From IMG/VR virus record IMGVR_UViG_3300037089_000656, positions 1-64,000 of that record: a stretch of 64,000 nucleotides of DNA; one strand, written 5' to 3'. The notes below the pieces were generated by a model, which had not been told where the DNA came from, ran no database searches, and saw only the letters and a list, made by a program, of their open reading frames with translations. Source of the stretch: a virus. The stretch's first letter is position 1. Each line of letters starts with the position of its first letter. Below are positions 21,897-25,199 of this stretch, one piece after another. Made by a program: the position numbers and the translations under genes.

Positions 21897-22124
21897 TTAT
21901 CTTGGCCTTGGTGTGTCATACCCATGTTCGTCGTATCCTGATGAACCCGCTGGTGGTCGATCTATGTGAGTAGTTCTACTCTCATCAGGTGTAAAAACGT
22001 GATAAACGGGTATAATAATAAAATCAAAAGTAAGAAATACTATAGCCGAAATTAAAATAATAACGGCTATAACTCCAATTGGTCCCAGATCTTTGTTTTG
22101 AGATGATTGAATTTTATCAGACAT
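21897..22124 (-). CDS. small single-pass membrane protein
   Basis: This 75-aa protein has one strongly hydrophobic segment (IGVIAVIILISAIVFLTF, residues ~17-34) with a short N-terminal tail and a polar, Pro/Gly/Asp-rich C-terminal tail. AAGGAGG sits in front of its ATG, inside a hairpin (22125-22162). It is the last gene of the minus-strand cassette and its stop codon touches the capsid stop codon. It might be a membrane anchor for the cassette or a lysis-type protein; there is no direct evidence for either. Confidence 0.65.
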   Translation of the reverse strand: MSDKIQSSQNKDLGPIGVIAVIILISAIVFLTFDFIIIPVYHVFTPDESRTTHIDRPPAGSSGYDEHGYDTPRPR

Positions 22125-22162
22125 AAATCCTCCTTATTATAATTATACAATAAAGAGGATTT
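22125..22162 (-). promoter_or_regulatory. inverted repeat covering the ribosome-binding site of the membrane protein gene
   Basis: AAATCCTC at 22125-22132 and GAGGATTT at 22155-22162 are perfect complements. On the minus strand the GAGG of the ribosome-binding site lies in the 3' arm, so pairing would hide it. The loop contains TATAAT-like sequence, so a promoter here is also possible. A second palindrome, ACAGTT-TAGT-AACTGT, overlaps the stop codon of the vWA gene just upstream. Confidence 0.45.
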
Positions 22163-22181
22163 ATTTGTTGATAATTACAGT

Positions 22182-22889
22182 TTAGTAACTGTATGTTTTA
22201 GTTTCCAATTCAGATAATTTATCCCTATTTATATTTAACATTTTGCATATTTCTTCTGGGGTTGTGTCTTTCGACATCATGTCTAAGATCTTAGCCCCTA
22301 AGGAAGCATCGTTAAATTCTTCTCGTAAAGTTTTTATTATGGCATCCATTGCATTCCCAGTTTGAATCATCATTCCACCTGTAAAAGTGGATAAAGTTTT
22401 GAATGATGCGAGAACGTCTTTGCTGGTTGTTAGTGGGATTGAATAGATTGGCACATTATTTTCTTCAGCTACTTGTATAGCTTCTCCCCAGGTTTTTCCA
22501 CAAGTACAATAATCTCTATGCCCTTCCATGCCATGGGGAGGAGCATCACCTATTAGAAAAGCGATTCTTTTAGAACCTTCTCTCCAGCTCATTGATTTGA
22601 TGCCTTCAATTATTCCATCAAGAACTGCTTCAGGGTAATCTCCGCCACCTCCGACAATTATTTGGTCGATTTTTTCCTGTATCATATTAATTTCCATTAA
22701 ATCGAAAGTTACAGTTACAAAAGAATCCCCTTGTGATGGATGATCTCGATAAAGAGATAGCCCAACTTTAGTATCGACATTGAATTCGGACGTGAGCTGA
22801 CTCAGAATATTTTTCATTTTATTTTGAGCCTCTGTAATGAATCCCGACATTGAGCCTGTGATATCGCTAATAAAAAGTATATCAATCAT
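22182..22889 (-). CDS. von Willebrand factor A domain protein
   Basis: This 235-aa protein is a vWA domain with a metal-ion-dependent adhesion site variant DITGSMS (D9, T11, S13), the strand VGLSLYRDHPSQ, a Gly-rich GGGGDYPEAVLDGI turn and IAFLIGDAPPHGMEG followed by CTCG. This arrangement (DxTGSM, RDHP, GGGDxPEAV, DAPPHG) is shared by a recognisable group of vWA proteins in bacteria and protists, including alpha-kinase partners. A ~50-residue C-terminal extension has helical repeats. It overlaps the upstream 411-aa gene by eight bases, so the two products probably work together in a complex. Confidence 0.85.
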   Translation of the reverse strand: MIDILFISDITGSMSGFITEAQNKMKNILSQLTSEFNVDTKVGLSLYRDHPSQGDSFVTVTFDLMEINMIQEKIDQIIVGGGGDYPEAVLDGIIEGIKSMSWREGSKRIAFLIGDAPPHGMEGHRDYCTCGKTWGEAIQVAEENNVPIYSIPLTTSKDVLASFKTLSTFTGGMMIQTGNAMDAIIKTLREEFNDASLGAKILDMMSKDTTPEEICKMLNINRDKLSELETKTYSY

Positions 22890-24117
22890 GATTTCCTCCT
22901 ACTGGTATTCCTTCAAGATAGCCTAATTTATTTCCTTTGAGATTGTTGAATCCTGCTGAAGCATATTTTTCGAACTCTTCTTGAAAAATAAAGTAAAGTC
23001 GAATTATCCCAGTAGGTTTATTTTCCCAACTTTCAACAGTAAATTTACTCTTTTCAACCTGTTGCTTTATTTGGGCACCTGCTCCGATTCCTACTTCTCC
23101 TCTGAAATCCCTTCTCTCACGTAGAGGGAGGACCATTGCATTTGAAAGTTCAGCTGAACTATAAAAACAACTTGCAGAAGCAATACCTTCTATATTTGAT
23201 TCAGAGGTGCTAAAAGAATCCATAGTGGCCATATTTAAAGATTCTCCTATACTGGCACCTCCAGCACAGATAGGACCACCACTTGAACTGGTATAAGTAA
23301 TTGCTGGTTCTGAGGGCATAGATGATGCACTCCCTAACACTGAACTTTCTAGGCTCTTGCATCTGTGTATACCTCGTACACCACGATAACCAGGTACTCC
23401 AGAGGGGCCATGATAACCATAAACTCCACCTATTCCAGTAATGCCACTAATGGACTGTCTAAAATCAAAATTTATAGGGAATTCATTTTTATGGTGCTTT
23501 CCACCTTCCCATATTTGAGTGTATTCCTTTTGTTTATAAAAACAAAATCCAAAGGCTGGAACTGTATCTTCTTTTCCAATACAAAGTTCAGGAACAGATT
23601 TCGCCATGTCCTCGGTGAAGTAAAACTGTCTTACTCCTTCAGGAGTTAGGAAACCATCGAGATAAAGTTTATTTGGTTGGGAAAGGTAGTTTTGAGCTGG
23701 CCATTTAAACCCACATTCAGTGCATAGTCTACCTTTGCTAAAAGGCTTATGGTGTATTGGGCATTCGTCCTGGTACTCTTCTATACCATAACCCTCGATC
23801 CTCTGTCCTGTGAGGGGATTCATGCCTTTAACGGAAGATAGTACTGCAGTATTATTAGGGTTATTCATTGTCCAGTTAAACCATATACCCCATTCGGAAT
23901 CTACTGGACATACATAAGACCCTTCTCCTCCGATCCAGTTCTCGGGATGAGCTTTTAAAAAGTCGACTGGGAGAACTGGGATAGGTATTCCTGGGGGAAG
24001 TTTGCCGTTGTCATTGGTCTTTTTTTCTGCTCTCATAATAGATGCGAAGAAACCATTGATATTCATAACCCTTTGCATATAAGGAGTTATAGAAAATCCT
24101 AATATATCTCTATACAT
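22882..24117 (-). CDS. unknown 411-aa vWA-partner protein
   Basis: I do not recognise this family. The N-terminal ~130 residues include WIGGEGSYVCPVDSEWGIWFNW and a zinc-binding group (CPIHHKPF, CTECGFKW). A middle section is Gly-rich with a short collagen-like GYHGPSGVPGYRGVRG stretch and Ser-rich low-complexity sequence. The C-terminal ~100 residues (LPLRERRDF..., GIIRLYFIFQEEFEKYASAGF) look folded. It overlaps the vWA gene and probably forms a complex with it. AAAGG precedes its ATG. It is transcribed against the surrounding late genes. Confidence 0.6.
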   Translation of the reverse strand: MYRDILGFSITPYMQRVMNINGFFASIMRAEKKTNDNGKLPPGIPIPVLPVDFLKAHPENWIGGEGSYVCPVDSEWGIWFNWTMNNPNNTAVLSSVKGMNPLTGQRIEGYGIEEYQDECPIHHKPFSKGRLCTECGFKWPAQNYLSQPNKLYLDGFLTPEGVRQFYFTEDMAKSVPELCIGKEDTVPAFGFCFYKQKEYTQIWEGGKHHKNEFPINFDFRQSISGITGIGGVYGYHGPSGVPGYRGVRGIHRCKSLESSVLGSASSMPSEPAITYTSSSGGPICAGGASIGESLNMATMDSFSTSESNIEGIASASCFYSSAELSNAMVLPLRERRDFRGEVGIGAGAQIKQQVEKSKFTVESWENKPTGIIRLYFIFQEEFEKYASAGFNNLKGNKLGYLEGIPVGGNHD

Positions 24118-24142
24118 AAGATTGCCTTTCTGATATAGTGGT

Positions 24143-24162
24143 GGCTCCCTCCGTAGGGAGCC
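24143..24162 (-). promoter_or_regulatory. strong intercistronic hairpin without T-run
   Basis: GGCTCCCT-CCGT-AGGGAGCC forms a perfect 8-bp stem with a four-base loop between two minus-strand genes. Neither side has a T-run, so it is not a classical terminator. It may stabilise or process the mRNA, giving unequal expression of the 342-aa and 411-aa proteins. Confidence 0.6.
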
Positions 24163-24170
24163 TGTTATAG

Positions 24171-25199
24171 TTAGTCTAAACCTTTAACATGAAAAGGATC
24201 TGCTGGTTTTGAACTTGGTAGGTTCTTCCTGACTATTAATCGAGGAAGATCATTTATAAGGACCAATTCATCATATTTTTTAGCAGCTTGAGGCCATGTT
24301 TTTCGAAGATCCTCGAGCCCTTTACTGGCACTTGCTAGTATAGCTCTTCGATCGGATTTATCGTAACTTTTTATTCCAGTAATAAGTTTGATAAAGGCTT
24401 TGATATTACTGTCCATGCCACTAAAATCTGAATTGCATTCTTCACAATATCCTTTGTATAAAGAACTGCCACAGAAAGGACAAATCTCAATGATTTGATC
24501 TTCTGGATTGAGCTCCGTAATGCGGTAGACATTAACAAAGGCATCACCTTGGCGAACTATAGAGGGGTTAACCATTCGGCGGGATCTTTTGAGAAGATCT
24601 AAACTCATTTCGATATCAATAGCTTTCTTTCCCACACTTTTATGTGTGTCGAACACTAAACCACAGGGTTTTAATACAATAAAGTGTTGGAAATTAGCTC
24701 GACGATGAAGTTCTTGTTCAACTTCATAATCTCGGTCCATATCATACATTTCCAATAATTCTCGATCTTTCATTTGTTTAGGATCGCGGAGACCCTTTGT
24801 AAGTTCAACGAATTTATTGGCTATGATAGTTCCGTCCACGACCAGGGCTGGGGAATTTGAGGTCGTGTTTGTTGTGTTGAGGACCCATGGACTAGGTTGT
24901 TTTGGGTCTATTTCATTTGAGATCTCGGCTTTTGGCTCTGTTTTTTTAAAAGGGTCTTTGCCTTTTAAAATAGATGCCAGAGCTAATCTAGCAAGTTTAG
25001 GGTAAGTGTAATCCTTAAAAGTATTAAGGATTATGTCTTCCGTTGTGGTCTCAGCGTCGAGAAGTGCAAGTCCATCCGCATCTGGTTCAATACCAAATTC
25101 AATTTTTAAGGCTTGCAGGAAATCAGATTCTTTGATCTTGAGAAGTTTTGAAGCTTGCTGAACGCGGGACTCAAATGTGGGGAAAGATACGGTATCCAT
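24171..25199 (-). CDS. unknown zinc-ribbon protein of the minus-strand cassette
   Basis: This 342-aa protein is the first gene of the minus-strand cassette. The frame is open to 25295, but AGAAGGAG six bases before the ATG at 25199 sets the start (MDTVSFPTFE). Residues 1-90 are helical. A mid segment carries VLKPCGLVFDTHKSVGKKAIDIEM, and near residue 240 there is a zinc ribbon CPFCGSSLYKGYCEEC. The C-terminal part is helical with conserved-looking basic patches. The zinc ribbon suggests an adaptor or nucleic-acid-binding role. I cannot assign a family. Confidence 0.6.
   Translation of the reverse strand: MDTVSFPTFESRVQQASKLLKIKESDFLQALKIEFGIEPDADGLALLDAETTTEDIILNTFKDYTYPKLARLALASILKGKDPFKKTEPKAEISNEIDPKQPSPWVLNTTNTTSNSPALVVDGTIIANKFVELTKGLRDPKQMKDRELLEMYDMDRDYEVEQELHRRANFQHFIVLKPCGLVFDTHKSVGKKAIDIEMSLDLLKRSRRMVNPSIVRQGDAFVNVYRITELNPEDQIIEICPFCGSSLYKGYCEECNSDFSGMDSNIKAFIKLITGIKSYDKSDRRAILASASKGLEDLRKTWPQAAKKYDELVLINDLPRLIVRKNLPSSKPADPFHVKGLD

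What the first reader, a model, noticed from the sequence alone, without database searches (positions are those of the whole stretch)
21897..25199. Minus-strand four-gene vWA cassette embedded in the + strand head genes
Between the capsid gene and the late operon leading to TerL lie four opposite-strand genes: a zinc-ribbon protein, an overlapping pair (unknown 411-aa protein plus vWA with a DxTGSM metal site), and a small membrane protein. The vWA and 411-aa genes overlap by eight bases, so their products probably form a complex. vWA proteins paired with zinc-ribbon or unknown partners occur in bacterial conflict and ter-type systems; here such a module sits as a separate insert in a structural cluster. 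It could be a superinfection-exclusion or host-takeover system. This is the best candidate for an undescribed system in the window.
Basis: partly seen in the sequence, partly recalled or inferred. Interest (0 to 1): 0.72.

Follow-up and report, generated by a model that had tools for sequence, protein, structure and literature searches.

The report
Three-gene vWA module of huge phages
Three neighbouring phage genes travel together between uncultivated huge phages and very probably make one protein complex built around a metal-binding vWA domain, two of whose parts belong to protein families that have no entry in the libraries searched; what the complex does is not known, but its patchy, mobile and fast-changing character points to a tool used against the host or rival phages rather than a virion part.

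Summary
The four minus-strand genes are real. Three of them (zinc-ribbon 342 aa, 411 aa, vWA 235 aa) are one module; the fourth, a 75-aa membrane protein, is not kept in any other triad locus. In 28 IMG/VR contigs the 411 gene has the zinc-ribbon gene upstream in 27. In eight, a VWA_4-type gene overlaps the 411 gene by 4-46 bp. In one more a different vWA follows, and in two near-copies a vWA is fused to the 411 protein. vWA genes cluster near the pair (16 of 18; 2.5 expected). The module is accessory: only 3 of 31 TerL-related large phages carry the pair, all three with both genes; six relatives have the same flanking genes without it. 411 proteins with a VWA_4 partner form one clade (100/100) that cuts across the TerL and zinc-ribbon trees, so 411 plus vWA probably moved as a unit. 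The 411 model has no usable PDB match. A zinc knuckle inserted in it is present in 24/24 paired members and 0/67 unpaired ones, and a long disordered loop is hypervariable. Best reading: a vWA-centred accessory complex for host or rival interaction (unproved); rivals are virion assembly and Ro60-like RNA handling.

The parts
24171..25199 (-). Zinc-ribbon protein gene, 342 aa (alternative GTG start at 25295), first gene of the module; helical domains around a CxxC/H...CxxC knuckle; ends near a conserved DPF motif
   Evidence: ORF; family alignments A5/A9; AF2 model pLDDT 83.5, no usable PDB match
24435..24482 (-). Zinc knuckle of the 342-aa protein (residues 240-255, CPFC...CEEC)
   Evidence: full ligand set in 19 of 24 family members
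24143..24162 (.). Intercistronic hairpin between the zinc-ribbon gene and the 411-aa gene (8-bp stem)
   Evidence: a stem of 8 or more bp of different sequence sits in 13 of 16 equivalent gaps of 28-90 nt
22882..24117 (-). 411-aa protein gene, second gene: conserved beta-rich domain in two pieces (1-211 and 331-411) around a disordered loop
   Evidence: ORF; 28 viral loci, bacterial branch; AF2 model
23713..23763 (-). Zinc knuckle inserted in the 411-aa protein (C119, H122, C132, C135)
   Evidence: 24/24 members paired with the zinc-ribbon gene, 0/62 bacterial and 0/5 lone phage members
23128..23484 (-). Hypervariable, mostly disordered loop of the 411-aa protein (residues 212-330), partly collagen-like
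   Evidence: pLDDT below 50 for most of 212-321; 27% identity to the closest distinct relative against 80% in residues 1-211
22895..22900 (-). Shine-Dalgarno-like AGGAGG of the vWA gene, lying inside the end of the 411-aa gene
   Evidence: a similar purine-rich sequence at the junction in the triad loci
22182..22889 (-). vWA protein gene, 235 aa, third gene, start overlaps the 411-aa stop by 8 bp; C-terminal extension
   Evidence: Pfam VWA_4 7.6e-10; 8 loci
22848..22865 (-). MIDAS-type metal-site motif DITGSM of the vWA protein (residues 9-14)
   Evidence: D9, T11, G12, S13, M14, D84 and D115 invariant in the 6 aligned vWA proteins
20701..25462 (.). Variable site between the sigma-like gene and the 187-aa/TerL gene block, in which the module lies
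   Evidence: module absent at the same place in six relatives (L220, L221, L222, L224, L225, L227), pair present without vWA in L034

Best explanation
The zinc-ribbon, 411-aa and vWA proteins are one accessory module of uncultivated huge phages and act as one complex. The 411-aa protein is the scaffold: a beta-rich domain that carries an inserted zinc knuckle, by which it probably pairs with the zinc-ribbon protein, and a long disordered hypervariable loop. The vWA protein is probably made by coupled translation on the 411 mRNA and binds the 411 protein; its Mg-dependent MIDAS site captures a peptide or protein ligand. The module most likely works on the host or on competing genetic elements (capture, relocation or inhibition of a target: takeover, counter-defence or exclusion) rather than as a virion part. 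SHOWN here: linkage, overlap, fusion, accessory distribution, one clade of vWA-linked 411s across two phage lineages, knuckle restricted to paired members, variable loop. INFERRED: physical complex, unit transfer of 411 and vWA, MIDAS ligand binding, knuckle as docking site. CONJECTURE: the host or rival target.
For: Pair linkage 27/28 contigs. 411-vWA overlap of 4-46 bp in 8/8 triads with a Shine-Dalgarno-like sequence inside the 411 gene. vWA of another subfamily directly downstream in L027 and fused N-terminally in L028/L029 (519 aa). 16 of 18 non-duplicate PF13519 hits lie in the fetched stretches around the pair, expected 2.5. Accessory: pair in 3 of 31 TerL-related large phages, never the zinc-ribbon gene alone, and sites without it. 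411s with VWA_4 partners form one clade (100/100) while their zinc-ribbon partners and TerLs fall in two groups. Knuckle 24/24 against 0/67. Loop 27% against 80% identity in the core; zinc-ribbon and 411 diverge faster (about 60-62% identity) than TerL or vWA (78%) between the window and its nearest distinct relative. vWA is described as a Mg-dependent peptide-binding chaperone that recurs in conflict systems (PMC9503650).
Against: No functional data, no known host. No match to any PADLOC model. 17 of the 28 contigs have no adjacent or fused vWA, and some (L034, L022, L026, L031) have none found within about 8 kb, so the vWA is not needed for the pair's basic role. The bacterial branch of the 411 family, over 60 loci, shows no vWA or zinc-ribbon neighbour of these types and sits in no evident defence context. 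Fast evolution and patchiness also fit tail or surface proteins. The clustering test treats loci as independent, though several share synteny.
Confidence: 0.45

Rival explanations
1. Virion assembly aid or minor virion component: the vWA protein acts as a cochaperone and the 411-aa protein, with its collagen-like loop, is a surface or tail-associated protein.
For: In the window and L011 the module lies next to an MCP-like gene and a TerL block; in L034 the pair is co-directional with the TerL block. MoxR-vWA pairs with a metallopeptidase domain are proposed to aid virion assembly in jumbo phages, and an archaeal virus needs one for its tail (PMC7824862); DUF2201-type vWA-metallopeptidases lie within about 0.8-5.5 kb of the pair in L017, L018, L020, L030, L035 and the copy L038. 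The loop is partly collagen-like, as are the presumed tail fibres of this phage.
Against: Absent from 28 of 31 TerL-related large phages and from the same site in six relatives. In L012, L033 and L036 the pair sits beside a DNA ligase, a ParB-like gene and unknown genes, not structural genes; L025 has the ligase but no ParB-like gene. No MoxR AAA+ match over the cut-off in 12 records. In the window it is transcribed against the surrounding genes.
Confidence: 0.27
2. RNA handling module related to Ro60/TROVE ribonucleoproteins: the zinc knuckles bind RNA and the vWA modulates a client.
For: TROVE/Ro60-vWA proteins or their relatives of about 530-600 aa lie near the pair in L012, L018, L025, L030, L033, L036 (and the near-copies L037, L038), in two different arrangements; tRNA genes occur near the module in L012, L025, L036.
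Against: The three module proteins have no TROVE domain; no Y-RNA-type family was found at gathering threshold in eight loci; the window has no tRNA and the near-identical contig no PF13519 match. The TROVE link may be synteny of two phage groups.
Confidence: 0.13
3. Ter/TerY-like stress or metal-sensing switch.
For: TerY-P triads combine a vWA with a zinc ribbon (PMC11090510).
Against: TerY-P also has a PP2C phosphatase and a kinase; none of the three module proteins matches a kinase or phosphatase model. No TerD found in 8 triad records.
Confidence: 0.05
4. Ordinary phage metabolism or a selfish passenger with no conflict role; linkage reflects only co-regulation.
For: No function known for any branch of the 411 family, which is widespread in bacteria; the pair occurs without an adjacent vWA in many phages.
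Against: Conserved overlap, fusion and apparent unit transfer suggest a joint function; the knuckle is restricted to paired members.
Confidence: 0.1

Closest known systems
VWA_4 domain family (Pfam PF25106)
   Same: The 235-aa protein matches above the Pfam cut-off and keeps the MIDAS motif
   Different: Here it is coupled to the 411-aa family and has a C-terminal extension and a conserved CxCGxTWG segment; I know of no described member with these partners
MoxR-vWA(-metallopeptidase) chaperone pair of jumbo phages (PMC7824862)
   Same: A phage vWA protein working with a dedicated partner; DUF2201-type vWA-metallopeptidases lie near the pair in some relatives
   Different: No MoxR ATPase over the cut-off in 12 carrying records; no peptidase domain in the window's vWA
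TerY-P triad (PMC11090510)
   Same: vWA plus zinc ribbon in a compact gene set
   Different: No kinase or PP2C phosphatase among the module proteins; no TerD found
Ro60/TROVE-vWA proteins
   Same: Neighbours of the pair in several relatives
   Different: Module proteins themselves have no TROVE domain
vWA genes of crAss-like phages (crAss001 Gp52)
   Same: Among the best named-phage hits of the vWA protein, 27% identity
   Different: No 411-aa or zinc-ribbon partner of these types annotated beside it
Bacterial-type 411-family proteins, one annotated 'putative membrane protein' in Virus Rctr197k (KX853510)
   Same: Same core protein family
   Different: Lack the zinc-knuckle insert; no zinc-ribbon or vWA partner in the bacterial loci or in the short stretches around five lone phage copies

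Membership tests
VWA_4 / vWA domain | Profile match above curated cut-off | tested here: met
   PF25106 39 bits against 27; PF00092 29.3 against 23.8
VWA_4 / vWA domain | Intact MIDAS metal site | tested here: met
   DxTGS motif plus D84 and D115 invariant in the 6 aligned members; metal binding itself not tested
MoxR-vWA chaperone pair | MoxR-type AAA+ ATPase encoded with the vWA gene | tested here: inconclusive
   No match to PF07726 over the cut-off in 12 carrying records; sub-threshold hits in two, far from the module (best 3.9e-4); records may be fragments
TerY-P triad | Ser/Thr kinase and PP2C phosphatase beside the vWA gene | tested here: not met
   No kinase or phosphatase match among the module proteins or the tested genes flanking it
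Ter system | TerD-type protein in the same phage | tested here: inconclusive
   None in 8 triad records; controls rang; records may be fragments
Ro60/TROVE RNP | TROVE RNA-binding domain in the protein | tested here: not met
   No TROVE match in the window proteins scanned; it is only a neighbour in relatives
Known anti-phage defence systems (PADLOC-DB 2.0.0) | Any module protein matches a model | tested here: not met
   0 families at E up to 0.1 for the four window proteins
Phage head/tail structural protein (PHROGs) | Match to a structural PHROG | tested here: inconclusive
   411-aa protein only weakly (0.03) to collagen-like tail and head PHROGs, through its low-complexity loop
Superinfection-exclusion system | Blocks entry or growth of a second phage | not testable with these tools
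   Needs expression and plaque tests

The most novel reading that the evidence does not exclude
The module is an undescribed type of phage-encoded conflict system: a vWA adaptor joined to a new beta-fold scaffold with a rapidly diversifying recognition loop and a zinc-ribbon partner, able to swap its vWA part, and shuttled between distantly related huge phages at variable sites.
Probability: 0.3. Interest if true: 0.8.

Novelty: new variant of a known kind. Interest (0 to 1): 0.58.

Why it matters
Two protein families with no match in Pfam or NCBIfam are tied to a vWA domain by overlap, fusion and apparent unit transfer, which turns three 'hypothetical' genes of huge phages into one defined candidate complex that can be expressed and tested. 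The 411-aa family also reaches many bacterial phyla and, by predicted fold, giant viruses, so its first function would annotate genes well beyond phages.

Tried and rejected
Sequence profile searches of the PDB with the 411 and zinc-ribbon families gave nothing credible (four hits to NKG2-D at E 0.02-0.6, judged chance). Foldseek and VIA-align on both models gave no PDB match above noise (best Z 4.0 and 4.7), so no fold is claimed; in BFVD the 411 model matches uncharacterised giant-virus proteins and one unnamed protein (E 1e-7 to 2.5e-3). First scan of bacterial genomes with the phage alignment found nothing; a second scan with two bacterial plasmid relatives found more than 100, whose neighbourhoods (astacin-like proteases, HTH regulators) gave no clear function. 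Considered and rejected: that the module is a core gene of the phage lineage; that the 75-aa gene belongs; that the cassette differs in G+C (0.37-0.40 against 0.39); that direct or inverted repeats mark an insertion (only short imperfect repeats). Promoter scan at chance level. No TerL match from the one PHROG model used in 13 of 28 contigs, probably fragments or divergent TerLs, so some records could not be placed on the TerL tree.
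Full report
WHAT IS THERE. The window is part of a 65,979-base IMG/VR record. The ORF table confirms four minus-strand genes between a + strand MCP-like ORF and a + strand gene block that leads to TerL: 75 aa (21897-22124), vWA 235 aa (22182-22889), 411 aa (22882-24117) and zinc-ribbon 342 aa (24171-25199, ATG start). The vWA protein matches Pfam VWA_4 (7.6e-10) and VWA (1.2e-6) and keeps DITGSM; the 411-aa and 342-aa proteins have no significant match in Pfam, PHROGs or NCBIfam, and none of the four matches PADLOC.

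THE MODULE IS THREE GENES. A search with the 411-aa protein, then with its alignments, brought 28 viral contigs, 20 kb to 470 kb long. In 27 of them a zinc-ribbon family gene lies upstream on the same strand, usually 4-90 nt away (a few have an inserted ORF or a longer gap); the 28th has a split 411 gene and no partner found. In eight (counting the contig near-identical to the window) a VWA_4-type gene follows and overlaps the 411 stop by 4 or 8 bp, or 46 bp if the longest ORF is taken; a Shine-Dalgarno-like sequence, usually GTAGGAGG, lies inside the last codons of the 411 gene, so translation is probably coupled. The 75-aa membrane gene has no counterpart in any other triad locus.

A SECOND vWA AND A FUSION. 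In L027 a vWA of another subfamily (196 aa) follows the 411 gene. In L028 and L029 a similar vWA is fused to the N-terminus of the 411 protein in one 519-aa ORF. Over all 28 records, 16 of 18 non-duplicate PF13519 hits fall in the roughly 17-kb stretches around the pair, against 2.5 expected by length (Poisson-binomial P 4e-13); this overstates independence, because several loci share synteny. Among these are Ro60/TROVE-type vWA proteins; DUF2201-type vWA-metallopeptidases, found by Pfam and clustering, also recur near the pair.

ACCESSORY AND MOBILE. TerL homologues of the window's phage were collected. Of 31 records of 133 kb or more, 3 carry the 411 family of the phage type and the same 3 carry the zinc-ribbon family; the other 28 have no zinc-ribbon match, and five of them hold a distant, bacterial-type 411. 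The records may be incomplete. The flanking genes are syntenic (DnaX-like, KOW, 5'-3' exonuclease, sigma-like // 92-aa, 185-aa, 516-aa, 176-aa, TerL). Six relatives (L220, L221, L222, L224, L225, L227) have this block with no module between; L034 has the pair without vWA, on the strand of the block; the window and L011 have the triad inverted. The 411 proteins with VWA_4 partners form one clade with 100/100 support, whereas their zinc-ribbon proteins and TerLs each fall in two well-supported groups that also hold, or are separated by, lineages without the vWA. So 411 plus vWA was most likely exchanged as a unit, downstream of a resident zinc-ribbon gene; independent losses with fast change of the 411 gene are a less simple alternative.

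ANATOMY OF THE PROTEINS. AlphaFold2 gives the 411-aa protein a confident beta-rich domain made of residues 1-211 and about 340-400, and a disordered stretch 212-321. In the closest distinct relative this loop is 27% identical against 80% for residues 1-211; in the window it is partly collagen-like. PDB searches gave no usable match; uncharacterised giant-virus proteins match the model. A bacterial branch of the family occurs in many phyla. The phage members that pair with the zinc-ribbon gene carry an inserted zinc knuckle (C119, H122, C132, C135): 24 of 24 paired members, 0 of 62 bacterial and 0 of 5 lone phage members. The zinc-ribbon protein has a similar knuckle, and the 411 profile weakly matches some of these proteins (1.9e-4). 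Because the paired members are one clade, the knuckle may be a single event. The knuckle as docking site is inference.

AN INTERCISTRONIC HAIRPIN. The gap between the zinc-ribbon and 411 genes holds a stem of 8 bp or more in 13 of 16 loci with gaps of 28-90 nt, against 13 of 35 other same-strand gaps (Fisher P 0.006; energy per base P 2e-5), with unrelated sequences in different loci. The loci are not independent. The hairpin may set the ratio of the two products; this is inference.

HOW IT PROBABLY WORKS. Shown: linkage, overlap, fusion, partner swap, accessory distribution, conflict of trees, paired-only knuckle, hypervariable loop. Inferred: one complex, unit transfer, and a vWA that binds a ligand through its MIDAS site. 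Published analyses treat vWA domains as Mg-dependent peptide-binding chaperones in conflict systems (PMC9503650) and as cochaperones in virion assembly (PMC7824862). Patchy distribution, insertion at a variable site, faster divergence of the zinc-ribbon and 411 proteins than of TerL or vWA (60-62% against 78% identity) and the variable loop favour action on host or rivals over a virion role, but only moderately; I put the whole statement at 0.45 and virion assembly at 0.27.

AGAINST KNOWN SYSTEMS. It is not a TerY-P triad (no kinase or phosphatase; no TerD found in eight triad records). A MoxR partner was not found over the cut-off in 12 records. It is not a TROVE protein, though TROVE-vWA genes are neighbours in two groups of relatives. 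No annotated phage among 50,697 records gave a match to the 411 or zinc-ribbon family of this type; the vWA protein's best named hits are crAss-like phages at 27% identity. The nearest TerLs in that collection are those of a 485-kb uncultured phage and Tunturiibacter phage Tunturi_5.

LIMITS. All relatives are metagenomic contigs without hosts, many are fragments, and gene calls in relatives are my own ORF calls. No experiment bears on function.

Noticed in passing
window 20953-21896: MCP-like gene is split into two frames by a 1-nt deletion at 21645 relative to a 99.98% identical contig (L010), where it is a 314-aa ORF; probably an assembly or sequencing error.
   Followed up: yes
window 20709-20966: 85-aa ORF looks like a partial duplicate of the N-terminus of the MCP-like protein (MDRYSI...LGK...); L011 also has an MCP-like gene with a 73-aa partial copy at this site.
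   Followed up: partly
window 20953-21896 against records: The MCP-like gene here scores 115 bits in intact form, relatives' main MCP matches 151-236 bits; most with both genes in one record lie roughly 15-22 kb on the other side of TerL. The gene here may be a paralogue or a relocated MCP.
   Followed up: partly
L126, L127, L128 (TerL of the L018, L030, L035 phages): TerL ORFs of about 970-1060 aa with a large insertion between matched parts, possibly inteins.
   Followed up: no
L035:6797-7954 and L030:7354-7953: ORFs inserted between the zinc-ribbon and 411 genes; the one in L035 matches LAGLIDADG_3 (1.4e-6), a likely homing endonuclease; the one in L030 has no match.
   Followed up: no
L015:10002-10463: A NADAR-domain gene (3.7e-23) overlaps the end of the vWA gene by 8 bp, a possible fourth module gene in that phage.
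   Followed up: no
L019:5633-6703 and L021:5697-6797: ARPP-1 domain proteins (7e-33, 5e-33) upstream of the pair, next to a 530-540-aa protein with a weak vWA match.
   Followed up: no
window 30998-63420: Several very long ORFs (1810, 2229, 621 aa and others) with collagen-like GxTGVQG repeats, probably tail fibres; the 411-aa loop also has a short collagen-like stretch.
   Followed up: no
window 11967-13475 and 43151-48914: Glycosyltransferase family 9 gene (3.4e-11) and further ORFs that look like glycosyltransferases by eye, unusual cargo near tail-fibre-like genes.
   Followed up: no
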